Below, piece by piece: positions 2-19,909 of a DNA stretch of 64,000 nt. The DNA comes from Hippopus hippopus (Eukaryota; Mollusca; Bivalvia; Cardiida; Cardiidae), in the NCBI GenBank assembly GCA_946811185.2, contig OX328109.1, positions 5,828,001 through 5,892,000 on the forward strand, in the 5' to 3' direction. A program made the position numbers and the translations under genes. The notes under the pieces are model-generated. The model saw only the letters and a program-made list of their open reading frames with translations. It did not search any database and was not told the origin of the DNA. Numbering within the stretch: position 1 is the first letter of the stretch; each line of letters starts with the position of its first letter.

Positions 2-451
2 TTATTCATCATCACTCGAACATTCATCATCCTCATCATCACTCGGAGATACATCTAAAATATTAGGCACAATTTCCTTTTTCTTCGTATTCGGTATTTC
101 CACATCCTTTTCTACTATCTTTACCGAAGTAACCTTAATCCGGATCGTTTCGACGCTTTTATTTTTAAATATACTATCTACTTTTAAAATACAAAACAAC
201 TTACAAGCTATTCCCATATATGAAAGAGGGTCTACCTCCTTGCCCTTTTCATCGTAAAAGAGGGTCCGAGATTCTCCGTTTTCGTAAAGTTTCGCGTATA
301 ACATAGCCGACCCATTATCATTATATCTTAAAATATTAATTTTGCTTAAATGTTTAATCTTGTCTCTTTTTAGTTCTTCGTCCTTACCATGCTCTCTGAA
401 GAAATCCCTTAGCTTTTCCAGATCTTCTTTAAAAGCTCTTTCCTTCTTCAT
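2..451 (-). CDS. Unknown acidic-tailed viral protein (149 aa)
   Basis: I do not recognise this protein. It is lysine- and glutamate-rich at the N-terminus, has a central beta-rich stretch (about residues 40-110), and ends in a run of Ser/Asp/Glu (last 15 residues), as in some DNA-mimic or histone-chaperone-like tails; that reading is inference only. It lies downstream of the TBP-like gene on the same strand. Unlike its neighbours it has no A/T-rich box touching its ATG: the nearest TTATAA is about 15-20 nt upstream. The reading frame stays open for 49 codons upstream of this ATG, back to the stop codon of the TBP-like gene, which is in the same frame. It could therefore be made by readthrough, as a fusion split by one stop, or from its own start at 451. 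The stop codon is at 2-4, on the window edge. Confidence 0.6.
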   Translation of the reverse strand: MKKERAFKEDLEKLRDFFREHGKDEELKRDKIKHLSKINILRYNDNGSAMLYAKLYENGESRTLFYDEKGKEVDPLSYMGIACKLFCILKVDSIFKNKSVETIRIKVTSVKIVEKDVEIPNTKKKEIVPNILDVSPSDDEDDECSSDDE

Positions 452-601
452 GGGTTTTCCAGCGTTATAACATATTAAAGGTAATGAGCAATCTTTTAGA
501 CCTTTTTTCTCCGATTTATCGGCGGGCGAGCTATCTTTCGAACCTTTTTTCTTCGATTTATCGGGCGGGCTACCTCTCGATTTATCAAACGCATTAACAC
601 C
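452..601 (-). other. Open in-frame linker with direct repeats between two viral genes
   Basis: These 150 bases separate the TBP-like gene from the 149-aa gene. They contain no stop in the shared minus-strand frame. Two imperfect copies of a roughly 45-bp unit (about 500-545 and 545-585) encode a Lys/Ser/Asp/Pro-rich low-complexity stretch. There is no ATG in this part of the frame. It reads more like a flexible protein linker than an intergenic promoter. Confidence 0.5.
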
Positions 602-1636
602 TTATGAAAACAAAACGGGGGTACGTATAAACAACGGACCACTTTTACCATTAGAGTATTTGTACTTTACTGGTATCTTAACAAATTCATACTCACTGCT
701 CTTATATTTATTCGGGTAATCTATAGAAAGATCTTCTTTACGAAATTCCCCACTTTTGATACAATCCATATCCCTCCTCATTTTTACATAGGATTTCTTA
801 CTTAATTTTAATTTTTTTATGCTATCATCGCGTCCATTCCCTCGGAGTCCCTCGGGCGACGAGCCTGAGATCTCTTTAAGATAACTCGGAAGTAGATATT
901 TTTTTAGCGAAAAATTACTGGCTTCTTTCGCTTTTATATCACCACGTTTTACTAAATCTAATAACCATTCTATAACCCGAGTTTGATACTTCTCATGAAC
1001 GCCCGAACACAGGACTTTTCCCGTTGTAAATATAAATAAACTAATATATTTCTTAGCTCTATTAATTGCAAACTTGCTATAAGTTATACTCGGTTCTTCT
1101 ATTAATCCCCCGTCTTCTATTCTAATTTTATAAACAGGCATATCATCTATCGAGTCTATAGTTACGCGATAATGCTTTTCATTAATGCAGGATACCTCGA
1201 GACCATTCGAATTTCTAATCACGCGAAATAACTTTTCTCTATCAACTGAGAATCCTAAGTTAAAAATAACGTTTCTCATTGTCGAAACTATACGAGCCTC
1301 TAAATGATCGAACTTAGGACAACATTTAAGGCTCCAAAATAAAAGTAAACCCGATTTACCATCATCAAAGTTTCTACAACCCGTAACCTGAATTACCCCA
1401 TTTCTAAAAAGTTTAAGGTTAAGGTTAACTCCTTCGAAAAAAGTAAATGATACACAGTTTAATAAATGCCTCGTTTTATTTACCTTTCTTTTCTTAAAAC
1501 CTTTCTCTCTCTCTTTATATAGCGTATGGATGAGAGAAGAATTTATGCCAGCTTCATCGAAGATTACTCCTAAATCAAGGTCGTTTAAGTTTGTGTATGC
1601 TGTGAAAGTGTGAGTGGATACAAAAAAGTCAGACAT
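602..1636 (-). CDS. TATA-binding-protein homologue, NCLDV-like
   Basis: The protein has 344 residues. Two regions match the two saddle repeats of TBP: about residues 60-100, with LKLFRNGVIQVTGCR at 74-88, and about 186-232, with FTTGKVLCSG at 203-212 followed by a helix like the one in TBP. Divergent TBP-like proteins of this type are known from large nucleocytoplasmic DNA viruses and would recruit RNA polymerase to A/T-rich promoters. To my knowledge TBP is not a standard polinton or adintovirus gene. The C-terminal 90 residues are basic and unassigned. The start is well supported: on the minus strand TTTTATAAATG runs straight into the ATG, as in the rightward genes. It could autoregulate through the divergent spacer at 1637-1752. 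The identification rests on motifs and repeat spacing, not a search. Confidence 0.75.
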   Translation of the reverse strand: MSDFFVSTHTFTAYTNLNDLDLGVIFDEAGINSSLIHTLYKEREKGFKKRKVNKTRHLLNCVSFTFFEGVNLNLKLFRNGVIQVTGCRNFDDGKSGLLLFWSLKCCPKFDHLEARIVSTMRNVIFNLGFSVDREKLFRVIRNSNGLEVSCINEKHYRVTIDSIDDMPVYKIRIEDGGLIEEPSITYSKFAINRAKKYISLFIFTTGKVLCSGVHEKYQTRVIEWLLDLVKRGDIKAKEASNFSLKKYLLPSYLKEISGSSPEGLRGNGRDDSIKKLKLSKKSYVKMRRDMDCIKSGEFRKEDLSIDYPNKYKSSEYEFVKIPVKYKYSNGKSGPLFIRTPVLFS

Positions 1637-1752
1637 TTATAAAATTTCTTTATTATTAAGTTGATATCAATCTCCGCCTCAGCGACCCCGGAGGACTGTC
1701 TCGCCGGAGGCTGTCTCGTGTGTGGGATAAATAAAAAATAGTTATATATAAA
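1637..1752. promoter_or_regulatory. Divergent promoter region of the viral element
   Basis: This spacer separates the leftward TBP-like gene from the rightward structural genes. Each edge carries an A/T box abutting a start codon: TTTTATAAATG on the minus strand and TATATATAAAATG on the plus strand (1743-1755). The middle (about 1675-1725) is GC-rich and contains a direct repeat, CCGGAGGACTGTCTCG followed by CCGGAGGCTGTCTCG. Similar GTCTCG-containing islands recur at about 7063-7100 and 11,080-11,160. It probably drives both arms. Confidence 0.6.
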
Positions 1753-2340
1753 ATGACGCGTTACACTAATGTTAAAGTAAATATATCGGAAGGGCAAAAG
1801 GAAAAGCTTCAACATGCTGTTAAAGCTGGTTGTTCAGCAACAAGTATTCGTTTAGGTCACGAAGATTTACGCGGTAATGATGTTTTAGCAATTACCGATT
1901 CACAAGCGAAGAAAATGGCTAAAGCCTATGAGGGTGGTAAGAGTATAACTATTAGAATGTCAGCGAGACAACTTAAACATAACTCGAAAATAGAAGGAGG
2001 TTTTCTCGGAATGTTAGCTGGGTTAGCTGCTAGAGCTTTGCCGATGCTCGCAAAAACCGTTTTACCGGCTCTAGGTGTTGGTGCTCTTTCTGGATTAGCT
2101 CAAACGGGTGTACAAAAAGCGATGGGGTCTGGTCTTTACCTTAAAAAAGGAGGAAGTGTGTGTCAAGTTGAAACTGATGGATGTGGATTATACTTAAAAC
2201 CATACAAAGGTAGGGGGTTATCTCGTGTCGGTGATGGGTTGTATCTAAAGCAGGGAGGAAAAATGTATGATGGAAGAGGACTTTTACTCGGGCCTAATAG
2301 TCCATTCGCTAATATCCCTATCTTAGGAGCTATATTATAA
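1753..2340 (+). CDS. Protein-X-like viral core/capsid accessory protein
   Basis: The protein has 195 residues. The N-terminal 75 residues are basic and helical (about 15-70). They are followed by a glycine-alanine-rich hydrophobic segment (about 77-118) opened by an IEGGFL motif. That layout, a basic region followed by a GG-hydrophobic stretch, matches adenovirus core protein X (mu precursor) and the X-like proteins of adintoviruses. The C-terminal part carries three copies of a GLYLK motif (about residues 125, 144 and 165). In related viruses such proteins bind DNA and are packaged with the genome. The gene opens the rightward array, 22 bp before the next frame. The start is fixed by TATATATAAAATG. 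The X-like label is from architecture and remembered family style; moderate certainty. Confidence 0.6.
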   Translation: MTRYTNVKVNISEGQKEKLQHAVKAGCSATSIRLGHEDLRGNDVLAITDSQAKKMAKAYEGGKSITIRMSARQLKHNSKIEGGFLGMLAGLAARALPMLAKTVLPALGVGALSGLAQTGVQKAMGSGLYLKKGGSVCQVETDGCGLYLKPYKGRGLSRVGDGLYLKQGGKMYDGRGLLLGPNSPFANIPILGAIL

Positions 2341-2362
2341 ACTAATATAATTCTATATTAAA

Positions 2363-2743
2363 ATGGAGGTTCATAAGTTCGGTATAAAGTCTAATATCTT
2401 CGGCCGACATGCGAGGGGAATATTTTGGAAACCACATTTAGAGGGAGTAAGATTTCCTCCCTTAAAGCGTGATCCTCTAAAATGGAAAATATACTCGCAA
2501 GTAACTATCAAGGTTCCTCCTCGTGATGGCACGAGAGTTTCGCTAGGATTTGATTATATAACTACACGAGGGGTTGTAGTTATATCTGTTAGTAATAAAT
2601 GGAAAGATAGTTTAACAATTCTTAATGGGACACATCTTGATAGTGAGGTTGATGATATCTCAGTCCACATTTATAATGTCTCGCGAAATCCGATCGAAAT
2701 ACCTGAGGGAGAGTTAATCTGCTATCTGAAATATTTGGCATAA
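2363..2743 (+). CDS. dUTPase-fold-like small viral protein
   Basis: The protein has 126 residues and is predicted mostly beta. Spacing and residue types follow the trimeric dUTPase fold: a VTIKVPPRDGTRV segment (about 48-60), a G.DYITTRGVVVISVSN strand pair (about 63-79), and a C-terminal IEIPEGELICYL that resembles the usual 'I..GD.I.Q' strand. Several catalytic residues of real dUTPases are not obvious, so it may be a non-enzymatic derivative such as a capsid or fibre component; that is inference. The start follows TATATTAAAATGG. The last 85 bp of the gene are part of a tandem duplication that continues into the next gene. Confidence 0.45.
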   Translation: MEVHKFGIKSNIFGRHARGIFWKPHLEGVRFPPLKRDPLKWKIYSQVTIKVPPRDGTRVSLGFDYITTRGVVVISVSNKWKDSLTILNGTHLDSEVDDISVHIYNVSRNPIEIPEGELICYLKYLA

Positions 2744-3388
2744 ACAAAAATAGTAGTTTAATAAAATGACTGATACGGATCAAAAACACCCTAATAAAAT
2801 ATACCCCCAGTTACCCAAAGAACAAAGTACGGCAAGCGCCCCGCCGCTTCCCTCACCTAGGGAGTCGACTCCGGGGCCGATTGAAATGCATGTGGATGAC
2901 AAAGGCCATTCCTACCGTTTACAAAAAATATCCGAAGTACAACAGTTTCTTGAGAAGGAGATTCGAGAAAGAGAAGCTCTAGCCAAAAAGTACTTAAATA
3001 TTACGTCCCTCGTAACGTATCACGTTAGAGATAGTCTTTGCATTCAAGAACTCAGTCCACATTTATAATGTCTCGCGAAATCCGATCGAAATACCTGAGG
3101 GAGAGTTAATCTGCTATCTGAAATATTTGGCATAAACAAAAATAGTAGTTTAATAAAAATGACTGATACGGATCAAAAACACCCTAATAAAATATACCCC
3201 CAGTTACCCAAAGAACAAAGTACGGCAAGCGCCCCGCCGCTTCCCTCACCTAGGGAGTCGACTCCGGGGCCGATTGAGATGCATGCGGATGACAAAGGCC
3301 ATTCCTACCGTTTACAAAAAATATCCGAAGTACAACAGTTTCTTGAGAAGGAGATTCGAGAAAGAGAAGCTCTAGCCAAAAAGTACTT
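2659..3388 (+). repeat. Tandem duplication (two 337-338-bp copies) with 55-bp filler
   Basis: Bases 2659-2995 are repeated at 3051-3388 with only a few differences: one extra A before the second start codon, and G/A and C/T changes in the MHVDD/MHADD codons. The unit covers the 3' end of the dUTPase-like gene, the spacer with its A/T start-codon box, and the first 76 codons of the next gene. The 55-bp filler (2996-3050) matches neither copy. Near-identity implies a recent event, or an assembly duplication. Confidence 0.9.
2766..3068 (+). pseudogene. Truncated duplicate of the membrane-protein gene
   Basis: The first 76 codons are nearly identical to the start of the complete gene at 3159. 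The frame then enters filler sequence and stops after 24 unrelated codons (100 aa in total), losing the hydrophobic segment and coiled-coil tail. It keeps its own A/T box before the ATG, so it might still be transcribed and make a proline-rich N-terminal fragment. It is best read as a by-product of the tandem duplication. Confidence 0.8.
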
Positions 3389-3869
3389 TCGTGCCTCTAG
3401 AATAGTAGACAACGTTGATATCATCCTGGTAACCGTAACAATGGTTGCTGGTGCGGGGGGTATAGGTTTGCTTTCTACCGTTGTAGCTATTCCAGCTGTA
3501 GTAGCATTAGAAGCAACGGCTTTGGGAACCGGCCTTCTTTCATTGGTAGGTAAGTATGTTGTTAGAAATAGTAGAAGCAAAGGAGAAAAGCACCAAAAGA
3601 TTAGAATGTTAGCTGACGCTAAGTTAGATACCGTTTCAACGCATATATCCAAAGCTTTAATCGACAATTATATCTCTGATGATGAATTCAGACTAATCAT
3701 GGAAGAATTAGATAAATATAAAAGCATGAAGGAAGAGATACGTACCAAGATCAAGAAGAAGATTTCCTCAGAAAACGAAGAAAGTCTAATAGAAAGGGGG
3801 AGGCGTGAGCAAAGGGAGTCCTTTCGGAGGCTTGTTGAAAAACATCACGGCAACCTGCTCGAATATTAG
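3159..3869 (+). CDS. Viral membrane-associated protein with coiled-coil tail (236 aa)
   Basis: I do not recognise a named family, although proteins of this layout occur next to polinton-like capsid genes in animal genomes. Residues 1-40 are proline-rich. A short charged helix (about 55-75) precedes two hydrophobic stretches (about 85-105 and 107-130), which look like a helical hairpin membrane anchor. Residues 140-236 are strongly charged and helical, probably coiled-coil. A virion membrane or entry-associated structural role is possible but is inference. The start is supported by the TTTAATAAAAATG box and by conservation with the truncated duplicate upstream. About 130 bp of non-coding sequence follow before the next gene. 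Confidence 0.7.
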   Translation: MTDTDQKHPNKIYPQLPKEQSTASAPPLPSPRESTPGPIEMHADDKGHSYRLQKISEVQQFLEKEIREREALAKKYFRASRIVDNVDIILVTVTMVAGAGGIGLLSTVVAIPAVVALEATALGTGLLSLVGKYVVRNSRSKGEKHQKIRMLADAKLDTVSTHISKALIDNYISDDEFRLIMEELDKYKSMKEEIRTKIKKKISSENEESLIERGRREQRESFRRLVEKHHGNLLEY

Positions 3870-3997
3870 ATTGCCAGAAATCCGTTGTAGATGTATTTGT
3901 GAAATGGGTGACACCTCAGACATGTAATCCGCAGATATATTACGTTGAAAACTGGGTTGAAAACTGAGTTGAAAAACTATTTTAGTAATTTAAAAAA

Positions 3998-4861
3998 ATG
4001 TCTTTTTTAAAAATCACGGATCCCGCAAAGAGGGACTTAATCGTAAAAGAGTATCTCGAAACGAGAAAGAATATTCGGGATAATCTAATAGCGGAGAAAA
4101 CGGGCGAACAACAACTTCAAACCGATCTTTCGAAGTTTTTTAAACCTATAACGGAAACGCAAAAAGCTACAGCGAGGGAGATTACGGAAGAACTTAAACC
4201 TATTAAAGAGGGTATAGAAAGCTTACCACAAGCTATTACTTTTCCAGACTCGTCTATAAAGGCTATTGAAGGAACATTAGAAAAACAAGGAAAAGATCTC
4301 GGAGAAATAGCGAGGAGTTATTTAATGAGACTCGGTGACCCAAAAATAGCGGATACAAAATTTGGAATAAGGTATGATGAAAGTAGTAATAAAATAAAAC
4401 TCGGCGACAAAATGATAATGTTTGATGGAAATGATATTATAATTGGTAAAGATGTATATGAGGGCACCCCCGGTCTATGGGAGTTAATCGTGTCTAGAAA
4501 CCCGAATGACAATATTTTTAATGATGAGGATTATGATAATTACGCGAGGATAATGGTAAAAACGAGTGCCCTTCATCAGGATTATGATTCGAGCAAAAAC
4601 CGACCTAATGCCAATAAAAGCGATAAATGGAAGAACATACACAAACCTATTTGGTATAACAGAAGAAGGTATGAAGGAAAGGGCATCGTTGTTATCCCAT
4701 CTGACCCTAACGCGTTAATAGAAAGACTAGACCTGTTGATGGCAAGTAAAGAAGTGGGTAACACGGGCGTAAGAAAGGAGTTAGTGGGCATTTGTGACGA
4801 ATTAAAAAGACAAGGCGTTTTAAATTCGAGCGCTTATAAGAATCTAATGTCTATATTATAA
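3998..4861 (+). CDS. Conserved polinton-associated protein of unknown function (287 aa)
   Basis: Residues 1-110 are charged and helical, probably coiled-coil. The C-terminal half holds a compact domain with GTPGLWELI (about 151-159), an N-Y-A-R-I-M helix, a basic KSDKWKNIHKP stretch and a closing helical segment. I recognise this C-terminal domain as common in hypothetical proteins of cnidarian and mollusc genomes (the DUF8207 type, from memory), consistent with spread by polinton-like viruses. Its function is unknown. It lies among capsid genes and ends one base before the ATG of the pVI-like gene, so the two are probably co-expressed. The start follows a TTTAAAAAAATG box. Confidence 0.7.
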   Translation: MSFLKITDPAKRDLIVKEYLETRKNIRDNLIAEKTGEQQLQTDLSKFFKPITETQKATAREITEELKPIKEGIESLPQAITFPDSSIKAIEGTLEKQGKDLGEIARSYLMRLGDPKIADTKFGIRYDESSNKIKLGDKMIMFDGNDIIIGKDVYEGTPGLWELIVSRNPNDNIFNDEDYDNYARIMVKTSALHQDYDSSKNRPNANKSDKWKNIHKPIWYNRRRYEGKGIVVIPSDPNALIERLDLLMASKEVGNTGVRKELVGICDELKRQGVLNSSAYKNLMSIL

Positions 4862-4862
4862 A

Positions 4863-5291
4863 ATGATCATCGTTAAACAACACGGATTTAAAAAGAGGTA
4901 TTCATATGGTGGTGCTGGAATCTTTGATAGCGTTGCCAACTTTTTAGCGAGGCTTTTTACTAGTAGCGCGGCGAAACAAATCGCGTCTTCTGCCCTCGAT
5001 GTGGGAAAGAGTGTAGCTAAGGAAGGTGCAAAGAAAGCTTTAGAGGCTGGAAAAAGCGCCGCTGTAAATGTGGGGAAAAAATTAGTTACGAAAGCGTTGA
5101 CACCGAAATCGAGGGAAATCTTACAAAAATATGGTGCTACGACTCCAAAGCCCCCACCCCCGCCCCAGGTGAAAACGCAAGACATTAATACGTTAATAGA
5201 TGGATCTTCTCTGGCAAAGACAGAGAGCGCCATTGCTATTCAAGACTTAGTTAAAAGATTAAACAGTGGAAGGGGCATTAAAACAGTATGA
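4863..5291 (+). CDS. pVI-like amphipathic capsid protein
   Basis: The protein has 142 residues. After a short basic leader and a YGGAG motif (about 15-19), an amphipathic helix (about 20-35) leads into a long Ala/Lys/Ser helix (about 36-80). Next come a proline run (about 98-104) and a C-terminal helix. In adenoviruses protein VI carries an N-terminal amphipathic helix that disrupts membranes and links hexon to the core; adintoviruses encode similar small proteins beside the capsid gene. The GG near the N-terminus could be a maturation-protease site, which is inference. The TATATTATAAAATG box before the ATG overlaps the stop of the preceding gene. A perfect hairpin lies between this gene and the capsid gene. 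Confidence 0.6.
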   Translation: MIIVKQHGFKKRYSYGGAGIFDSVANFLARLFTSSAAKQIASSALDVGKSVAKEGAKKALEAGKSAAVNVGKKLVTKALTPKSREILQKYGATTPKPPPPPQVKTQDINTLIDGSSLAKTESAIAIQDLVKRLNSGRGIKTV

Positions 5292-5311
5292 AAATCCAGC
5301 TACGGTTAGAA

Positions 5312-5341
5312 CACTTATAATTTTATTTAAAATTATAAGTG
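5312..5341 (+). promoter_or_regulatory. Perfect 13-bp hairpin just upstream of the capsid gene
   Basis: CACTTATAATTTT and its exact reverse complement flank a four-base ATTT loop. The hairpin lies 20 bp after the pVI-like stop and 10 bp before the capsid ATG, and is followed directly by CTATTATAAAATG. It could be a terminator or processing signal for the upstream transcript, or a dyad operator for the capsid promoter. Confidence 0.6.
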
Positions 5342-5351
5342 CTATTATAAA

Positions 5352-6638
5352 ATGGACATTTTAAGAATCACCGAACCGATTTCGAGAGACGATAGCATTG
5401 ATGAGTATGAACACCATGAGTATGAGCCAATCACAGGTACACACCTCAACAACTCTGGAGGAGATATTAGGATTAACATCGAGACCCAAGATATTTTTAC
5501 TCATCCTAGTGAGAGTTATTTACTTATTGTAAGTGAGTTAGTAAGAAGCGATACTGGAGCAGTTTACGATGCTAACACCGGTATTTCTATAACAAACAAT
5601 GGTCTCATGTATCTTTTTAAAAATATTAAGTATCAACTTTCGGGCATGGAGATTGAGTCCGTATTGAATCCTGGCCATGCTACTACAATGCTCGGTTTGT
5701 TAAAATATCCGGATGATTTCTCTAAATCACAAGGGTTAAATCAATGCTGGTATAAAGATACAACGGCTAACGCGGGTGCTGGAAACACGGGTTTCGTCGT
5801 AAGAAGAAATTATATTATTAATAATCCTCTTCCAAGAGGTACGTTTAGCTTCAGAGTTCCATTAAAACATATATTCGGTTTTTGCGACGATTACGATAAG
5901 ATATTGTACGGAATGAAGCAAACTCTCACATTAACGAGAAATGATGATAATGATGCGGTCTTTCGAGATAATGCCGCTCCCGCTGATGGTAGAATTAATT
6001 TACTTAGAATATCTTGGTATATGCCACACGTGCTACCCGCGGATGAAGAGAAGATGCAACTGTATAAAATCATCGAGAAAAAAGAAAAAATACCGGTCGG
6101 ATATAGAATGAGGCAGTGCGACTCTATCGCAGTTCCTCAGTCAACATCATTCACCTGGAGACTTTCCGTCAAATCATCTCCCGAAGTGCCGCGTTTTATC
6201 GTTGTTGCCTTTCAGACTGGTAAAAGCGGCGATCAAGAGCAAAATCCCGCTATATTTGACCATAGTAACGTTAAAAATATTTATGTTACCTTAAATTCTA
6301 CTAGATATCCCGCCGTTGATTATAATCTTTCATTCGTTGCGAACCAATTTAGTAGAGTGTATGGTGACGCTTCTCTATTTAGATCCAAGTTTTATAACAT
6401 GAACGAAATGGTGTCAAACCCCAACATTACTCCCTCAGATTATAAAGCCCTTTATCCCCTGTTTTTGTTTGACGTTTCCAAACAGAGTGAGAGATTAAAA
6501 TACTCCGTCACTGATATCCAAATCAAAGCGAGTTTTACCGAAAATGTGCCCGCGAACACAGAGGCATATGCCGTTATTATTAGCGATAGGTTAATTAACT
6601 TCCAGTCTGACGGAAATAAGATGAGCGTAGTGTATTAG
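5352..6638 (+). CDS. Major capsid protein, double-jelly-roll (hexon-like)
   Basis: The protein has 428 residues, is predominantly beta, and lacks a signal peptide. Two jelly-roll halves are suggested: residues about 25-215, with strand-rich IRINIETQDIF and later FSFRVPLKHIFGF, and about 240-428, with FTWRLSVKSSPEVPRFIVVAFQT and a closing AYAVIISDRLINF strand. This is the major capsid protein type of polinton/adintovirus-like elements in invertebrates, forming trimeric pseudo-hexameric capsomers of an icosahedral shell. The length is shorter than adenovirus hexon but normal for this group. The frame is intact, so the capsid gene could still be functional. It follows the X-like and pVI-like genes, as expected for a structural module. 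The start is fixed by CTATTATAAAATG. High confidence as capsid-type; the fold is inferred from family resemblance. Confidence 0.82.
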   Translation: MDILRITEPISRDDSIDEYEHHEYEPITGTHLNNSGGDIRINIETQDIFTHPSESYLLIVSELVRSDTGAVYDANTGISITNNGLMYLFKNIKYQLSGMEIESVLNPGHATTMLGLLKYPDDFSKSQGLNQCWYKDTTANAGAGNTGFVVRRNYIINNPLPRGTFSFRVPLKHIFGFCDDYDKILYGMKQTLTLTRNDDNDAVFRDNAAPADGRINLLRISWYMPHVLPADEEKMQLYKIIEKKEKIPVGYRMRQCDSIAVPQSTSFTWRLSVKSSPEVPRFIVVAFQTGKSGDQEQNPAIFDHSNVKNIYVTLNSTRYPAVDYNLSFVANQFSRVYGDASLFRSKFYNMNEMVSNPNITPSDYKALYPLFLFDVSKQSERLKYSVTDIQIKASFTENVPANTEAYAVIISDRLINFQSDGNKMSVVY

Positions 6639-6651
6639 TTAAGAGGCTATT

Positions 6652-6717
6652 TCTTATATATAAAAAATGATAAAAACAGTTAAGTCAAGTTAAGTAAGTC
6701 GGTTACATATAAAAATG
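6652..6717 (+). promoter_or_regulatory. Duplicated-type leader with mini-uORF before SAP/NUMOD gene
   Basis: TTATATATAAAAAATGATAA opens the leader. Its ATG (6667) starts an eight-codon frame ending at 6693. A GTTAAGTCAAGTTAAGTAAG stretch then leads to a second box, ACATATAAAAATG, that contains the true start. The same arrangement, clearly homologous, precedes the polymerase gene at about 7120-7189. No other gene in the element has it. Confidence 0.65.
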
Positions 6718-7053
6718 TTAACGGCTAGCGATTTAAAGAAAATTCTTAGACGAAATGATATACCTTTTTACGGGTACTGGGATAAAAAGCGGTTACTCGA
6801 ACTAGCGAAAACGTGTGGACTGTTACCGGAGGAGCCACCAAAAAAAGAAAGGAGCAAAGACCCGAAGTATGATAAATTAAAGACTATTTCGCGTAATCCT
6901 AGGAAAGTCACTTTAGAGGATGTTAAAACCGGCGAAATAAAAACCTTTCCTTCGATTTATAGCGCGAGTAAATTTATAGATCGATGCCCGCAAACGATCG
7001 GAAATTGGGACGGGAGAATTTGGAACGATAAATATAAGGTTACCATCGATTAA
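6715..7053 (+). CDS. Small DNA-binding protein: SAP-like plus NUMOD-like domains
   Basis: The protein has 112 residues. Residues 1-38 form a SAP/Rho-N-like helix-extension-helix (SDLKKILRRNDIP...KKRLLELAK). Residues 63-112 match the NUMOD1-type motif seen beside homing endonucleases: V.LEDV.TGEIKTFPSIYSASKFI..., then GRIWNDKYKV. Both motifs bind DNA. No nuclease domain is present, so it may be a free-standing regulator or a replication accessory. The neighbouring polymerase has similar SAP-like modules at its N-terminus, and the two genes share a related leader, suggesting common regulation. Confidence 0.65.
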   Translation: MLTASDLKKILRRNDIPFYGYWDKKRLLELAKTCGLLPEEPPKKERSKDPKYDKLKTISRNPRKVTLEDVKTGEIKTFPSIYSASKFIDRCPQTIGNWDGRIWNDKYKVTID

Positions 7054-7119
7054 CTTTATTGCGTCACTCGCCCGACCTGGTGTCGACGAGACAGGGAAGT
7101 ATTAAGTTATGTATCATTT

Positions 7120-7189
7120 TTTATATACATAAAAAATGATAAAAAAGAAAGAAGTTAAGTTAAGTAATTAAGGCACATATAAAAAAATG
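7120..7189 (+). promoter_or_regulatory. Second copy of the leader with mini-uORF, before polymerase
   Basis: TTTTATATACATAAAAAATG starts an eleven-codon frame (7136-7171) that begins with the same ATGATAAAAA as the leader at 6652. It continues with a GTTAAGTTAAGTAA stretch and ends in ACATATAAAAAAATGG, the polymerase start. Just upstream (about 7063-7100) is a GC-rich island containing GTGTCGACGAGACAGG. Confidence 0.65.
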
Positions 7190-10100
7190 GTCGATTATAA
7201 TATATATACCGTAAGCGGTTTAAAAAATTTGGCAAGGTCTAGTGGAATCCGAGGATACTCTAGGCTCAAAAGAGCCGAATTAATCGCGCGTCTACGTAAT
7301 CCTCAGCCTATTAGTCTAGCGGATCAATTCCGAGGATCCACAGTAGAAGACTTAAAAAGGAAAGCTAAGTCTAGTGGAATCCGAGGATACTCTAGGCTCA
7401 AAAGAAGCGAATTAATCGATCTCTTACTTAATCGGAGAGCGTCATTATTAGACTATAATATCGGTAATTTTCGGGCCAAGGTATTACAACCAACACCTTA
7501 CACACCTCCCAAACCCTCGACGCGAGGTCCCTCGGGCGTCAAAACCTCAGTTGACGAGTTGATAAAGTATTTAGATAGCATTAAAGAAATTCCGATAAAT
7601 ATATCGCCTAGGATAAAAGCTTTACAAATAAAAATAGACCAGTTATATAAGGATAAAGATGAAATAGAGATTATAGAAAGATCATCTGCACTAAAGGGAT
7701 TCGCGAAAGAATATCTTATAGAAGGTAAAGGAGAATATTCTCCAGCTGATTTCCTTGATCTAGCGAAAGGTAAAGTAACCAGTATTATTAGAAATAACCG
7801 ACAGACAAAAGTTAAACTCATTATGAATTGCATGATGAAACACTCTATTACCCAAGAGTTAAAAGAGATGAATTTCCATTCCGGTTATCCAATCACTAAC
7901 TTAGAAGGGGAAGACGAGAATGAAATATATGATGTAATGGCGGAAGCTGTATTAGAAGTTATAGCTGCCAAAGAAATGGAAACAGATTATTGGAGAGTTG
8001 TTTACGTAATCGATTTAAGATTATACACAGCAGCGTTTAATCCATTAAGAGCTAATTCCTGGTTTCCTACTCCTCCTAATATAAAGAAAACAAAAAGCGT
8101 TATTAACCCGATAAATACGGAGGATGATATGTGCTTCGCGTATTGCATTCTTATAGCTTTGAACCCGACGGATCATAATGCAGAAAGAATCGAAAGACTA
8201 AAACCCCTGTTAAGCACTATAAATATGGAAGGGATTAACTACCCCGTTTCCCTTTCCGATAGAATTAAATTTGAGAGACAAAATCCTTCGATATCGGTAT
8301 CAATTTTCGGATATAATCACACCGGTGTTTACCCGCTTAGTATAAGTAAGGAGATTTATAAAAGAGACCATCATATTAATCTTTTACTTCTCGAGAGGGA
8401 CGGCACCAAACACTACTGCTTAATTAAAGACCTGAGTAGATTGTTATCTAAACAAATATCCGATCATAACGGTCAAACTTATATTTGCCAAAGATGTTTA
8501 AATCATTTCAAAGAAGAAAGAACTTTAAAGAAACATTTAGAGTATTGCGGGGAAAAAGATGCTTGTAGAATAGACTTACCTGAAGAGGGTACCACTATAT
8601 CTTTTGAGAATTTCCATAGACAGCAGAGACATCCTTTCGCAATTTACGCGGATATGGAGGCTACGTTAGAAAGGCAATGTGAAAAGAAGGGGAATAGTAC
8701 GAAGGTTATTCACGCTCATAAAATCTCGGGGTACTGTTTCTACGTTAAATCGCTTTACGAAGATGCCTACCCATCTGATCTTTTCCAATATTCCGGCGAA
8801 AATGCGGCTGAGAAATTCGTAGATGAATTAGAAGAGGTTATAAAAGCAATAAGTAAGATACCAAAGAGGGAAATAATTTTTAGAGCTAGGGATAAAAGGA
8901 AGTTTGATAGAGCAGAAAATTGCTGGATATGTAATAAACCATTTACGGAAGAAGATGAAGAAGATACAAAAGTAAGAGACCATTGTCATTTCACCGGAAA
9001 GTTTAGGGGAGCCGCGCACAATACGTGCAATTTGAAATGTAGAAGACCTACTTTTACACCCGTATTCCTTCATAATCTTAGTAGGTATGATGCTCATTTA
9101 TTTATAAAAGATTTAATGACTACAGAGGGTGACACGAGTTGTATACCAACAAACATGGAAACGTATATAAGCCTGTCTAAAAGGATACCGATAGATTACT
9201 ACGTATTTGATAAAAAATCGAAGAAATATATAGAGAAGACTAAAACGCATGAGATTAGATTCCTCGATAGTTTTAAGTTCCTAGCTAGAAGTTTAGACGA
9301 ACTCGCCAGGTCTCTATCCGAGAAGGAGAAGGTTACTCTCTCAAAATACTTAGAGGGGAAAGAGCTTGAAATGGTCTCTCAAAAAGGCATATTCCCGTAC
9401 GAATGGTTCGATAGCTTTAGCAGACTCGAAGAAACGAAGCCACCCGAACGAAGGAAGTTTTACTCAAAGCTTAAATGTAGTGGAATTGATAAGGAAGATT
9501 ATCAACACGCGTTAAATGTATGGAAGACATTCAAGATGGAAACTTTTAAGGAGTATCATGACCTATATAACAAGGTTGACGTTTTACTGCTAGCTGATGT
9601 TTTCGAGAACTTCAGAAACGTTTGCTTCGAGAATTACGGACTGGACCCATCTTGGTTTTATACGGCTCCGGGATTAGCTTGGGATGCGATGTTAAAAACT
9701 ACTGAGGTAAAATTAGAACTATTATCCGACCCAGATATGGTTTTATTTATCGAAAACGGAATAAGAGGAGGTATCTCTACCATTTTAAAACGATACGCGA
9801 CAGCGAATAATAGTTATATGGGTGGGAAATACGACCCGAACAAACCCTCGAGATTTATTACTTACTTGGACGCGAACAATCTTTATGGCTGGGCAATGTC
9901 TCAAAAACTTCCTACCGGTAATTTCAAATGGATGGATAATCCGGAAAATTGGAGGGACCAGCCCTGTATATTAGAGGTCGACTTAGATTATCCCGAAGAA
10001 TTACACGATTTACACAATGATTTACCTCTAGCTCCCGAAAGATTAAAGGCCCCTAACGCAGCTGGGCGGGCGGCAGTCGAAAAACTTATACCTAATTTGT

Positions 10101-11071
10101 ACCATAAAAAGAAATATATATTACATCGAGAAAACTTAAAGTTGTATTTAAGTTTAGGTATAAAGCTTAAAAAGATTCACAGAGGGTTAACTTTTGATGA
10201 GAGCGAATGGTTAAAACCTTATATCGATAAAAATACTAACCTGAGAACGAAAGCTAAAACGGTGTTTGAAAAGGACTTCTTCAAACTCATGAACAATTCC
10301 GTGTTCGGTAAGACCATGGAAAATATAAGGAACAGAGTCGATGTGAAATTAGTTAGTACCGAGGAGAAAGCGGAAAAATTAGTCGCCAAACCAAATTTCT
10401 ACCATATAACTATCCTCGATGAAGACTTATGTATATTTCAAATGAAAAAGCTTCGTTTATACTTTAATAAACCTATCTATGTAGGGATGTCTATTGTAGA
10501 TTTAAGTAAGACATTGATGTATAACTTCCACTATAATTACATTAAAGATAAATATGGCGAAAAAGTTAAACTTCTTTTCACCGATACAGACAGTTTAATG
10601 TATGAAATAGAAACGAAAGATTTCTATAAGGATATTAGCGACGATGTTAAAGATTGGTTTGATACAAGCGAATATCCACCCGATCATCCTTCAGGCATTC
10701 CCACCGGATTAAATAAGAAAGTTGTGGGTATGTTTAAGGACGAGGTGAGCGGTAGGGCTATCGAGGAGTTCGTGGGTCTCAGGTCTAAACTATACTCCTA
10801 TAAAATGTGCGATGATGAAGAGAATAAGAAATGCAAGGGAATTTCAAAACAGGTAGTAAAGGCGTTTATCAAGCACGAACATTACAAAGAGTGTTTGTTC
10901 GAAAAGAAGACGCAATTAAGGAATATGGTAGTTATTAGGAGTCATAAGCACGAGTTGTATACTGAAGTAGTTAATAAAATCGCATTAAGCGGGGATGATG
11001 ATAAACGCCATATCCTCGAAAATAATATCGATACGTTAGCATGGGGGCATACTAAGATAAGGCAAAAATGA
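7187..11071 (+). CDS. Protein-primed family B DNA polymerase
   Basis: The protein has 1294 residues and replicates the viral genome by protein priming (family knowledge). Two SAP/Rho-N-like modules (about 9-40 and 51-81) share an exact 35-bp DNA repeat at 7238 and 7371. A domain with Cys316, Cys320 and His409 may be an OTU-like cysteine-protease fold, a hypothesis. A zinc-finger-like C434..C437...H..C455 follows, then an endonuclease-VII/HNH-like CWIC (579-582) with RDHCHFTG (around 599). Exonuclease motifs are DME (489-491), HNLSRYD (629-635) and YNKVD (794-798). Polymerase motifs are DANNLYG (A, from 895), KLMNNSVFG (B, 1033-1041), TDTDS (C, D1133 and D1135) and KLY (1201-1203). All look catalytically competent. 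The start is set by the ACATATAAAAAAATGG box. No integrase follows. Confidence 0.95.
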   Translation: MVDYNIYTVSGLKNLARSSGIRGYSRLKRAELIARLRNPQPISLADQFRGSTVEDLKRKAKSSGIRGYSRLKRSELIDLLLNRRASLLDYNIGNFRAKVLQPTPYTPPKPSTRGPSGVKTSVDELIKYLDSIKEIPINISPRIKALQIKIDQLYKDKDEIEIIERSSALKGFAKEYLIEGKGEYSPADFLDLAKGKVTSIIRNNRQTKVKLIMNCMMKHSITQELKEMNFHSGYPITNLEGEDENEIYDVMAEAVLEVIAAKEMETDYWRVVYVIDLRLYTAAFNPLRANSWFPTPPNIKKTKSVINPINTEDDMCFAYCILIALNPTDHNAERIERLKPLLSTINMEGINYPVSLSDRIKFERQNPSISVSIFGYNHTGVYPLSISKEIYKRDHHINLLLLERDGTKHYCLIKDLSRLLSKQISDHNGQTYICQRCLNHFKEERTLKKHLEYCGEKDACRIDLPEEGTTISFENFHRQQRHPFAIYADMEATLERQCEKKGNSTKVIHAHKISGYCFYVKSLYEDAYPSDLFQYSGENAAEKFVDELEEVIKAISKIPKREIIFRARDKRKFDRAENCWICNKPFTEEDEEDTKVRDHCHFTGKFRGAAHNTCNLKCRRPTFTPVFLHNLSRYDAHLFIKDLMTTEGDTSCIPTNMETYISLSKRIPIDYYVFDKKSKKYIEKTKTHEIRFLDSFKFLARSLDELARSLSEKEKVTLSKYLEGKELEMVSQKGIFPYEWFDSFSRLEETKPPERRKFYSKLKCSGIDKEDYQHALNVWKTFKMETFKEYHDLYNKVDVLLLADVFENFRNVCFENYGLDPSWFYTAPGLAWDAMLKTTEVKLELLSDPDMVLFIENGIRGGISTILKRYATANNSYMGGKYDPNKPSRFITYLDANNLYGWAMSQKLPTGNFKWMDNPENWRDQPCILEVDLDYPEELHDLHNDLPLAPERLKAPNAAGRAAVEKLIPNLYHKKKYILHRENLKLYLSLGIKLKKIHRGLTFDESEWLKPYIDKNTNLRTKAKTVFEKDFFKLMNNSVFGKTMENIRNRVDVKLVSTEEKAEKLVAKPNFYHITILDEDLCIFQMKKLRLYFNKPIYVGMSIVDLSKTLMYNFHYNYIKDKYGEKVKLLFTDTDSLMYEIETKDFYKDISDDVKDWFDTSEYPPDHPSGIPTGLNKKVVGMFKDEVSGRAIEEFVGLRSKLYSYKMCDDEENKKCKGISKQVVKAFIKHEHYKECLFEKKTQLRNMVVIRSHKHELYTEVVNKIALSGDDDKRHILENNIDTLAWGHTKIRQK

Positions 11072-11205
11072 GCGCGATCCTCAGACCCTGACGGCACCCT
11101 GACGAGGCTGCCTCGACACCCTGACAAGCCTGTCTCGCCTCGGCGAGTGAGACAGTCAGCCGGGTCGTTCGATCTGCACCGTTTGACCTTTACCCCCATT
11201 TGACC
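11072..11205. other. GC-rich 3' flank of the polymerase gene with hairpin-forming repeats
   Basis: Two related units start with ACCCTGACGAGGC and ACCCTGACAAGCC. Each is followed by a self-complementary CTCG/CGAG stretch, including GTCTCGCC...GGCGAGTGAGAC, which can fold. The composition differs sharply from the A/T-rich coding block. It may act as a transcript end or belong to the terminal region of the element. Confidence 0.45.
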
Positions 11206-11830
11206 TTGAGTTTTGCGCTTGACTTGCACCAGAGTTAGGCCGGCGGAGGGGAACCTCCCTAGTGGGAGAGAGTTTTACGCTTGACTCTGACCATTTATAA
11301 TTGTGTTCCTCTCACGACATTAATGCATTTTTTTACCTTAAGGCGCGGGAGAGAGTTTTACGCTTGACTCAGACCAGAGTTAGGCTAGTAGAGGGGACCA
11401 GTCTAGCGGAGGGGGGTTTTGTGCTTGACTTGACCAGAGTTAGGCTGGTGAAGGGGGGCCTGAGAGTTTATGTTTTACTTGACCAGAGTTAGGCAGGTGG
11501 AGGGGGTCACTCTAGTTTTTATGCTTGACTTGACCAGAGTTAGGCTGGTGGAGGAGGCCACCCTAATGGGGAGAGAGTTTTGTGCTTGACCTGGCCAGAG
11601 TTAGGCAGGTGGAGGGGGCCAGAGAGTTTGTGGTTGAGTTGACCAGAGTTAGGCAGGTGGGAGGGACCACTCTAGCGGGGGTGGGGGCCAGAGAGTTTAT
11701 GCTTGACTTGACCAGAGTTAGGCAGGTGGGAGGGACCACTCTAGCGGGGGTGGGGAGAGTGGTTGAGTTGACCAGAGTGAGAGATTGATTCACGGATTGT
11801 GGAGGGGAGGGACCATGTTAGGCAGGAAGA
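11206..11830 (+). repeat. Degenerate minisatellite next to the viral element
   Basis: About ten units of 48-70 bp (one with an extra 20-bp interruption) share TGCTTGACTTGACCAGAGTT, then AGGCAGGTGGAGGGG and GAGAGTTTTA. Units differ by internal 10-20-bp deletions. It begins about 135 bp after the polymerase stop. Open frames inside it are artefacts of the repeat period. It could be the subterminal repeat of the viral element or a host minisatellite at the insertion site. Confidence 0.85.
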
Positions 11831-12077
11831 CTTGACCTGCTAAGCGTGAGCCAGCTCTCTCACTTTATATCTACTGCCGTAGACTCACTAACTCATCGGC
11901 AAATATATTGTGTAAAATCGATGTTTTCGTAAGGCTCTTCGGCCAATCTCGGCAGCTTCCGTCTTTCAATATGAGAGTTAGGGGCCGTAAACCTTTCAGT
12001 ATGGCGTTACCCGCCATCTTCCGTAGTATGAAGCCATTCAAGTAAGAACATTTCTTTGATTCTTGGTGATTACTTAG
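11831..12077. other. Unassigned junction between viral block and host DNA
   Basis: I see no gene or known repeat here. The boundary between virus and host probably lies in or just before this stretch. Two occurrences of a sequence like TCTTTCAATATGAGAG / CCTTTCAGTATGGCG suggest a short local duplication. Confidence 0.3.
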
Positions 12078-18637: not shown

Positions 18638-19909
18638 CGAGGGGTGATCAGAAAGAACGCGGACCAGTGCCTTTATCGGAATATTGTTATAAAAATCAAC
18701 TTGGAATGTTTACTGTTTTTCAAAATAACCTCCTTTGTGTTCTATGCACTTATTCATTCTTGATTCCCATGCGCGAAACACGTGCGCGAGCCCGTCACGT
18801 GACATCACTCTCAACGACCCGGTCATGGCATGGGTTAGCTCCTCTCTGCTCTCGTAGCGCGTGCCACGTAGAGAATCTTTCAAAACAGGAAATAGCCAAA
18901 AGTCACATGGGGCCAGGTCTGGACTATAGGCAGGATGGTCTAATGTTTCTATGTTTAGTTTTTTCAAAACTTCCTGTACAAGTTTGGCTTTGTGAGCGAG
19001 AGCATTATCTTGATGTAAAATGACGCCTCTCCATAGAAGTTCCGGCTGTTTTTTTCGGATGGCCTGTATTAAATTTATTCGAATAATGCTGGCATAATAC
19101 TCAGCATTGACTGTAGTATGTATAGGTACAACATGATTTAGAAGAAAACGTTGAGAAGAGAAAAACATGATGCACATAACTTTACCAACAGACTTAGAAA
19201 GTTTGGCTTTAACAGGGGACGGCGATGTTGGATGTTTCCATACACTGCTTTGTTGTTTAGATTCGGGCTCGTAAAAGTGTACCCATGTTTCATCGCATGT
19301 CACAATACGATCAGTAAAGTTTGATCCTTCTTTCCTAATGCGTTCTAAAATTTCAGAACAAATTTCGACCTTAACCCCCATTTGCTCGGGCGTCAGTAGC
19401 CGAGGCACCCACCTTGCACAAACACGCGACATTCCAAGTTTGTCAGTTAAAATCTCCTGTGCACTTCCATAGGAAATGCTAAATGTGTCAGCTATTTCCC
19501 TGACAGTAACTCGACGATCTTGCTTTACATGCTGCTGCACATCCGCGATAGTTTTGTCCGTTACTGATGTTGATGGACGGCCAGATTTAGGGTCATTTTC
19601 AACGGTTTCGCGTCCTTCTCTAAATCGTCCAATCCATTTACAAATACTGGTTTTCTTAAGTGCTGAGTCCCCATAAACTTTATCTAAATCGGCCTTAATT
19701 TCCGATGAAGACTTTCCGACTTTAACGTAAAACTTTATAATTACTCTCTGCTCAAATAAAACGTCATCCGACATTGTGAACCGCTAACGCAGTATGTGAT
19801 AAAGTAAGTAACCAGGTAATTAATGTTCATCTGTGCAAATTTTTGTTATCTTAAGTAAAGTAGTTTTTGAAATAATCGGGTGGTTCGCGTTCTTTCTGAT
19901 CACCCCACG
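18638..19909 (-). mobile_element. Complete mariner transposon
   Basis: The 1272-bp element has about 28-bp terminal inverted repeats, GGGGTGATCAGAAAGAACGCG at both ends with two mismatches nearby, flanked by TA at 18,636-18,637 and 19,910-19,911 (the mariner target duplication). It contains one intact transposase frame. Intact ends and frame indicate a recent and possibly still mobile insertion. Confidence 0.95.
18710..19774 (-). CDS. Mariner transposase (DD34D)
   Basis: The protein has 354 residues, the normal mariner length. The N-terminal paired-like DNA-binding region (two helix-turn-helix units, about 1-110) contains FREGRETVENDPKSGRPSTS and WVPRLLTPEQ. Catalytic Asp residues are in TCDETWVHFYEPE, in HQDNALAHKA and in SPDLAPCDFWLFP. 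The spacing between the last two is 34 residues, the mariner signature. It cuts and pastes its own element at TA. No stop or frameshift is seen, so it appears functional. It lies 39 bp inside the right-hand boundary codons and 135 bp from the other end, as usual. Confidence 0.96.
   Translation of the reverse strand: MSDDVLFEQRVIIKFYVKVGKSSSEIKADLDKVYGDSALKKTSICKWIGRFREGRETVENDPKSGRPSTSVTDKTIADVQQHVKQDRRVTVREIADTFSISYGSAQEILTDKLGMSRVCARWVPRLLTPEQMGVKVEICSEILERIRKEGSNFTDRIVTCDETWVHFYEPESKQQSSVWKHPTSPSPVKAKLSKSVGKVMCIMFFSSQRFLLNHVVPIHTTVNAEYYASIIRINLIQAIRKKQPELLWRGVILHQDNALAHKAKLVQEVLKKLNIETLDHPAYSPDLAPCDFWLFPVLKDSLRGTRYESREELTHAMTGSLRVMSRDGLAHVFRAWESRMNKCIEHKGGYFEKQ

What the first reader, a model, noticed from the sequence alone, without database searches (positions are those of the whole stretch)
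602..7189. Virus-encoded TBP plus start-codon TATA boxes: a candidate private transcription system
Eight intact rightward genes, the TBP-like gene itself and even the truncated duplicate have an A/T-rich box running into the ATG: TATATATAAAATG (1743), TATATTAAAATG (2354), TTTAATAAAATG (2757), TTTAATAAAAATG, TTTAAAAAAATG, TATTATAAAATG (twice), ACATATAAAAATG, ACATATAAAAAAATG, and on the minus strand TTTTATAAATG (1646-1634). The element also encodes a divergent TBP homologue. In NCLDVs, viral TBP-like factors serve viral promoters, and poxvirus late promoters also overlap the start codon. I know of no polinton or adintovirus described with both features. Inference: the viral TBP redirects host RNA polymerase II to very short-leader promoters.
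Basis: partly seen in the sequence, partly recalled or inferred. Interest (0 to 1): 0.88.

Follow-up and report, generated by a model that had tools for sequence, protein, structure and literature searches.

The report
Polinton with TBP and start-codon promoters
A virus-like jumping element in an animal genome carries its own version of the protein that tells RNA polymerase where to start, and most of its genes begin with the same kind of two-part A/T-rich signal running into the start codon, which hints at a private way of switching on its genes.

Summary

The boxes are real: 10 of 10 right-half starts have an A/T run of 8 or more, against 9 of 334 other ATGs. Across related elements the signal is two-part and phased to the ATG: A/T block (-26..-16), ~5-nt spacer, TATAAA-like box, the layout described for poxvirus late promoters.

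That the viral TBP reads these signals with host Pol II is inference. 37 of 40 elements with capsids 92-95% identical show no TBP hit, and one element without an assigned TBP keeps boxes. This copy is broken. New variant of a known kind.

The parts
602..1636 (-). TBP-like gene; residues 1-240 fold as a two-repeat TBP saddle; the tail (about 310-344) is the beginning of a DUF2738-like domain in this frame
   Evidence: the tail alone had no Pfam hit, but in uninterrupted copies it precedes DUF2738 in one frame
2..601 (-). DUF2738 domain in the same frame as the TBP ORF, cut off from it by a stop codon at 602-604; uninterrupted in many other copies
   Evidence: (E 6.8e-13 on the piece after the stop)
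1637..1671 (-). TBP promoter block: about 35 bp kept with the TBP gene although sequence further upstream is unrelated in other element types
1726..1752 (+). two-part promoter of gene 1753, kept nearly letter for letter in L070 and L071 while sequence further upstream differs
1753..2340 (+). 195-aa protein, virion-type by reading only; no family hit
2354..2362 (+). start-codon box of gene 2363
2363..2743 (+). 126-aa protein, weak dUTPase match below cut-off (E 0.017)
2757..3068 (+). truncated tandem duplicate of gene 3159 with its copied box
3149..3869 (+). box and gene 3159 (236 aa)
3986..4861 (+). box and gene 3998 (287 aa)
4852..5291 (+). box overlapping the preceding stop codon, and gene 4863 (142 aa)
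5312..5351 (+). perfect palindrome (14-nt arms) followed by the MCP start-codon box
5352..6638 (+). double-jelly-roll major capsid protein
   Evidence: (PF21738, E 8.4e-56)
6707..7053 (+). box and 112-aa gene (SAP/HeH-like by reading; Pfam HeH E 0.075, below cut-off)
7177..11071 (+). box and 1294-aa polymerase-like gene; the B-family label rests on recalled motifs, Pfam found no polymerase domain (it matched Rho_N and, below cut-off, Endonuclease_7)
11175..11875 (.). right terminal inverted repeat (701 nt, 99.7% to the left one at C14:5822623-5823323, outside the window)

Best explanation
The element is a polinton (Maverick) that has acquired a nucleocytoplasmic-virus-like TBP, in this lineage fused to a DUF2738 domain, and whose genes use very short two-part promoters: an A/T-rich block at -26..-16, a spacer of about five bases, and a TATAAA-like box running into the ATG. 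Most likely the encoded TBP (or TBP-DUF2738) binds the A/T block and recruits a polymerase that it does not encode, most simply host RNA polymerase II, which starts within or just before the start-codon box and gives mRNAs with almost no leader. Shown: TBP fold, element bounded by inverted repeats with no recognised polymerase, phased two-part signal kept across diverged relatives, purifying selection on the TBP core. Inferred: the binding, the polymerase, the start site. I put the anatomy at about 0.9 and the mechanism at the figure below.
For: TBP fold; in a virus-only library the first twelve hits include Marseillevirus LCMAC201, two iridescent viruses and two ascoviruses. Element ends and gene content, no RNAP or TFIIB recognised in 18 ORFs searched. 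Boxes: 10/10 against 9/334; in five elements 33 of 43 starts against 55 of 1610 other ATGs, or 38 of 43 against 88 of 1610 if one terminal base may differ; TATAWA/TTATAA in -14..-1 in 25 of 43 against 86 of 1610. Two-part layout over 14 gene families (55 starts): G+C 0.30 at -45..-30, 0.074 at -26..-16, 0.28 at -15..-11, 0.064 at -10..-1; spacer above block in 14 of 14 families, above box in 13 with one tie; 0 of 5000 circular-shift controls reach the observed block. Genes are packed so tightly (26 bp between the ATPase and PLA2 ATGs; protease ATG 2 bp after the previous stop) that promoters must be short or lie in coding sequence, and the block is A/T-rich even there in the three cases looked at. 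TBP travels with about 35 bp of upstream sequence between element types. TBP core dN/dS 0.31-0.58 in 14 comparisons, all against the window copy.
Against: No transcript, binding or polymerase data. 37 of 40 elements with capsids of 92-95% identity show no TBP hit (the TBP search scored only 117 of 342 candidates, so misses are possible). The element in L072/L075 has boxes at MCP, 112-aa, polymerase, ATPase, protease and fibre genes but no TBP hit that I can assign to it; its penton, 2363 and 3159 starts have weak ones. The letters of the box turn over: distant orthologues (23 ungapped comparisons) agree at 0.63 of box positions against 0.56 for non-orthologous pairs, no better than the flank (0.40 against 0.28), so what is kept is A/T character and position, not a sharp word. 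Penton, ATPase and protease of this copy have weak boxes. Some distant TBP copies lack a clear box. The block zones were read off before the family test, on largely the same starts; the shift test (106) scans all windows.
Confidence: 0.42

Rival explanations
1. Host TBP/TFIID or Pol II reads the boxes by itself; the viral TBP does another job (late switch, host shut-off, or replication together with DUF2738).
For: Of 98 scored capsid genes 40 have no TBP hit within 20 kb and 58 have one, and one element without an assigned TBP (L072/L075) keeps many boxes. [quoted passage not shown] that host TBP is meant is recalled).
Against: Would leave the retention of TBP in the 96-100% group (55 of 58) and its purifying selection unexplained; a canonical TATA box lies about 24-30 bp before the start site (passages), which would put the start inside the gene if the start-codon box were the TATA box.
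Confidence: 0.22
2. Virophage-like dependence: the promoters mimic late promoters of a large DNA virus that infects the same host, and the helper's RNA polymerase transcribes the element.
For: Layout equals that given for poxvirus late promoters (about 20-bp core, 5-7 bp gap, TAAAT at the start, no 5' leader; PMC5294985 passages) and resembles ASFV late promoters (motif 4-12 bp from the start, median late leader 9 nt; PMC7163114 passages). Late promoters of the helper, defined as TATATA, were found before 6 genes of a pacmanvirus transpoviron (PMC11788076 passages). The viral-library hits of the TBP are such viruses.
Against: No helper known; the early motif AAAATTGA occurs once in the element; the element carries an integrase frame and inverted repeats and is abundant in an animal genome assembly.
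Confidence: 0.2
3. The boxes are not promoters: A/T-rich translation context (A at -3 to -1) and poly(A) signals of the preceding gene.
For: Several boxes contain AATAAA, ATTAAA or TATAAA; A is at -3 and -2 in 93% and 100% of 43 starts.
Against: A/T runs of 11-14 also stand at divergent starts with no preceding gene on that strand (TBP and 1753; PLA2-like, though its divergent partner ATPase has a run of only 3 here); translation context does not explain the block at -26..-16 behind a spacer.
Confidence: 0.1

Closest known systems
Polintons/Mavericks and adintoviruses
   Same: 17.25 kb, long terminal inverted repeats, DJR capsid, A32-type ATPase, chromo-domain integrase frame, polymerase-like gene
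   Different: Carries a TBP and DUF2738; no such polinton or adintovirus appeared in my searches (most of the papers listed there and were seen as listings only)
Poxvirus late promoters (PMC5294985 passages)
   Same: A/T core, 5-7 bp gap, short A/T initiator overlapping the start codon
   Different: Box here is TATAAA-like rather than TAAAT; no viral RNA polymerase recognised in the element
[quoted passage not shown]
   Same: Viral TBP homologue; late motif close to the start; very short leaders
   Different: ASFV encodes its own RNA polymerase and a TFIIB homologue
TBP-like proteins of iridoviruses, ascoviruses and marseilleviruses (BFVD)
   Same: Among the best structural matches in a virus-only library
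   Different: These belong to genomes of 100 kb and more, most with their own polymerase (recalled)

Membership tests
Polinton/Maverick | long terminal inverted repeats | tested here: met
   701 nt, 99.7% identical, ends AG...CT
Polinton/Maverick | 6-bp target-site duplication | tested here: inconclusive
   gccgta on both sides with one extra base on the left
Polinton/Maverick | retrovirus-like integrase | tested here: met
   in the uninterrupted L070 copy rve E 1.6e-7 (31.9 bits, 0.7 below cut-off) and Chromo above cut-off; frame broken in the window's element, whose C-terminal piece matched Chromo at 25.0 bits, 0.1 below cut-off
Polinton/Maverick | protein-primed family B DNA polymerase | tested here: inconclusive
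   no Pfam polymerase hit; label from recalled motifs
Polinton/Maverick | double-jelly-roll capsid protein and packaging ATPase | tested here: met
   PF21738 E 8.4e-56; Pox_A32 E 2.1e-8
Polinton/Maverick | adenovirus-type cysteine protease | tested here: inconclusive
   138-aa ORF, no convincing Pfam hit; label by reading
TBP | two-repeat saddle fold | tested here: met
TBP | sequence-profile membership at curated cut-off | tested here: not met
   window protein 17.7 bits against cut-off 22.9; best member of the aligned family E 1e-7
TBP | binds A/T-rich promoter DNA and recruits polymerase | not testable with these tools
   needs biochemistry
Nucleocytoviricota | own multisubunit RNA polymerase (in most members, recalled) | tested here: not met
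   none recognised among 18 ORFs of the element

The most novel reading that the evidence does not exclude
A lineage of animal polintons runs a private transcription programme: its own giant-virus-type TBP (TBP-DUF2738) captures host RNA polymerase II and directs it to poxvirus-late-like two-part promoters that start at the initiation codon, a working model of how the promoter system of large DNA viruses could exist without a viral polymerase.
Probability: 0.3. Interest if true: 0.9.

Novelty: new variant of a known kind. Interest (0 to 1): 0.74.

Why it matters
I found no description of how animal polintons are transcribed, and polintons are thought to stand near the root of several large DNA virus groups (recalled). 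An element with a TBP, late-type promoters and no recognised polymerase separates parts of the viral transcription system normally found together. The same genome offers a natural experiment: TBP-bearing and apparently TBP-less elements with nearly identical capsids.

Tried and rejected
Viral and prokaryote collections gave no relative. Rfam and tRNA scans of the window: nothing. Structure of the DUF2738 domain: model useless, mean pLDDT 32, so no fold search was made. Sequence profile of the family against the PDB: one TBP at E 0.0038, the rest above 0.3 and mixed with chance hits. Conservation of the box by letter identity: little above the non-orthologous expectation; rejected as an argument. 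Conservation of the TBP block against four-fold sites: not clearly slower (in the distant copies mostly 1-3 of 34 against 0.10-0.16); only the sharp break at -36 is informative. Early giant-virus motif AAAATTGA: one match. Shared contigs between TBP and MCP relatives in other genomes: 11 of 66 TBP contig lengths also occur among the 120 listed of 5119 MCP hits; suggestive only. Host identity: not established; the three listed MCP relatives that carry an organism name come from the scallop Ylistrum balloti. Whether TBP-less sister elements carry the box: not answered.
Full report
What was checked. In the window, ten of ten right-half starts (nine independent, since 2766 is a tandem copy) have an unbroken A/T run of 8-12 nt before the ATG; among 334 other ATGs of the same stretch nine do, and among 59 ORF starts in the host part two do. 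The eleventh start tested, 451(-), has none, but I do not take it for a real start: the frame runs upstream to the stop codon of the TBP ORF.

The element. The window lies at C14:5828001-5892000 of a 1.07-Gb assembly. The 9.1 kb to its left (L069) holds penton-like, A32-type ATPase, PLA2-like (with DUF5679), integrase (broken frame), protease-like and fibre-like (broken frame) genes (penton, protease and fibre are labels by reading). Inverted repeats of 701 nt, 99.7% identical, bound an element of 17,253 bp, ending AG...CT with a candidate 6-bp duplication gccgta. The rve integrase domain is found just below cut-off in the uninterrupted copy of L070. The polymerase label rests on my reading of motifs; Pfam does not confirm it. 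Among the 18 ORFs searched with Pfam I recognised no RNA polymerase and no TFIIB. This copy is not intact: stop between TBP and DUF2738, tandem duplication, broken integrase and fibre frames.

Relatives. Besides eight 4-kb loci I fetched 20 stretches of about 9.6 kb and 40 of 311 bp around TBP copies, then five of 9 kb and one of 9 kb. TBP occurs in several positions: in mid-element beside gene 1753 (window type); beyond the fibre gene, with a further gene upstream (L018/L070) or without (L071); beyond the polymerase gene at the other end (L073) (partly by coordinates). Window type and L018 type share the same 35 bp before TBP: in 18 loci 0-3 of 34 positions differ from the window, while 15-19 of 24 differ at -60..-37. 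More distant copies have other A/T-rich boxes such as AAATCTTATAT before the ATG; some (L035, L040, L048, L056) lack a clear one, L057 has a plain A run, and L021 has no ATG (not counted further).

The two-part signal. In five elements I compared 43 gene starts. Left out were the near-identical copies L009 and L011, the DUF2738 rows, one row of the 112-aa gene without a homologous start, and two PLA2 rows without an ATG. 33 of 43 have an A/T run of 8 or more, against 55 of 1610 other ATGs. In the base table A/T is 81-100% at -26..-16, 60-84% at -15..-9 and 88-100% at -8..-1. With one value per gene family (14 families, 55 starts, now including seven from L075 and extra TBP rows), G+C is 0.30, 0.074, 0.28 and 0.064 in the zones -45..-30, -26..-16, -15..-11 and -10..-1; spacer exceeds block in 14 of 14 families (P 6e-5) and exceeds box in 13 with one tie (P 7e-4). 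The zones were chosen. A scan over all 11-nt windows with each family shifted at random reached the observed minimum in 0 of 5000 trials. In the three cases looked at where the block lies in the coding end of the previous gene it is still A/T-rich (G+C 0.09-0.18 against 0.37-0.38 for those genes). Against this, letter identity of the box between distant orthologues is 0.63, barely above 0.56 for non-orthologous pairs; for the block it is 0.58 against 0.45 and for the flank 0.40 against 0.28 (23 ungapped comparisons): the constraint that I can show is on composition and position.

Comparison. A review describes vaccinia late promoters as a core of about 20 bp, a gap of about 5-7 bp and a TAAAT motif at the start site, with no 5' leader (PMC5294985, passages). 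For ASFV the late motif lies 4-12 bp from the start, late leaders have a median of 9 nt, and the authors propose use by the viral TBP and TFIIB homologues in an unusual complex (PMC7163114, passages). Mirusviruses often carry TBP (59% of genomes; PMC10132985, passages). Library searches combining polinton with TATA-binding protein, polinton and virophage with TBP, and polinton with TATA gave 3, 1 and 25 papers; adintovirus with promoter and TATA, and polinton with bivalve and TBP, gave none. I opened passages of five of the listed papers and none describes a TBP in a polinton; the other listed papers I did not open. Two related preprints hold no occurrence of TATA or TBP. Most subscription journals are not in that library.

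Function of TBP. Its core shows purifying selection (dN/dS 0.31-0.58 in 14 comparisons with the window copy), weaker than capsid (0.09-0.26 in 6) or penton (0.05-0.13 in 3). Of 98 scored capsid genes, those at 96-100% identity have a TBP hit within 20 kb in 55 of 58 cases, those at 92-95% in 3 of 40; the TBP list used had 110 loci, merged by hand from 129 matches. The capsid search had 2468 candidates and scored 98; the TBP search scored 117 of 342, so absence is provisional. TBP is therefore a retained accessory of a large subgroup, not proven necessary for the promoters.

Judgement. The anatomy is solid and unusual. The mechanism, viral TBP redirecting host Pol II, is the simplest reading but rests on inference; helper-virus transcription and reading by host factors remain open.

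Noticed in passing
5312-5341: Perfect palindrome with 14-nt arms just before the capsid promoter; in L070, L072 and L073 the outer arm bases change on both sides, so pairing or a two-fold binding site seems kept.
   Followed up: partly
6650-6676 and 7119-7145: Repeated TATATA...AAAAAATGATAAAAA motif about 40-60 nt upstream of the 112-aa and polymerase-like genes, the second within a hairpin 7107-7146.
   Followed up: no
L069:5984-6535: DUF5679 plus phospholipase-A2-like protein; the latter domain is known from parvovirus capsids (recalled).
   Followed up: no
18710-19774: Uninterrupted 354-aa mariner-type transposase ORF on the minus strand, with the HTH of Mos1 transposase.
   Followed up: no
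11212-11781: Minisatellite of about 50-60-nt units inside the terminal inverted repeat.
   Followed up: no
L071/L072/L075: Two related polintons side by side in the same orientation, with reverse-transcriptase-like ORFs (by reading) between and after them.
   Followed up: partly
L013:1724-2329: Gene beginning MEPLKEFL directly upstream of TBP in another element type; no PHROGs hit (Pfam not tried) and no A/T box at its own start.
   Followed up: partly
G000 genome: 2468 first-look candidates for the capsid protein, 98 of them scored: probably a very large expansion of polintons in one animal genome.
   Followed up: no
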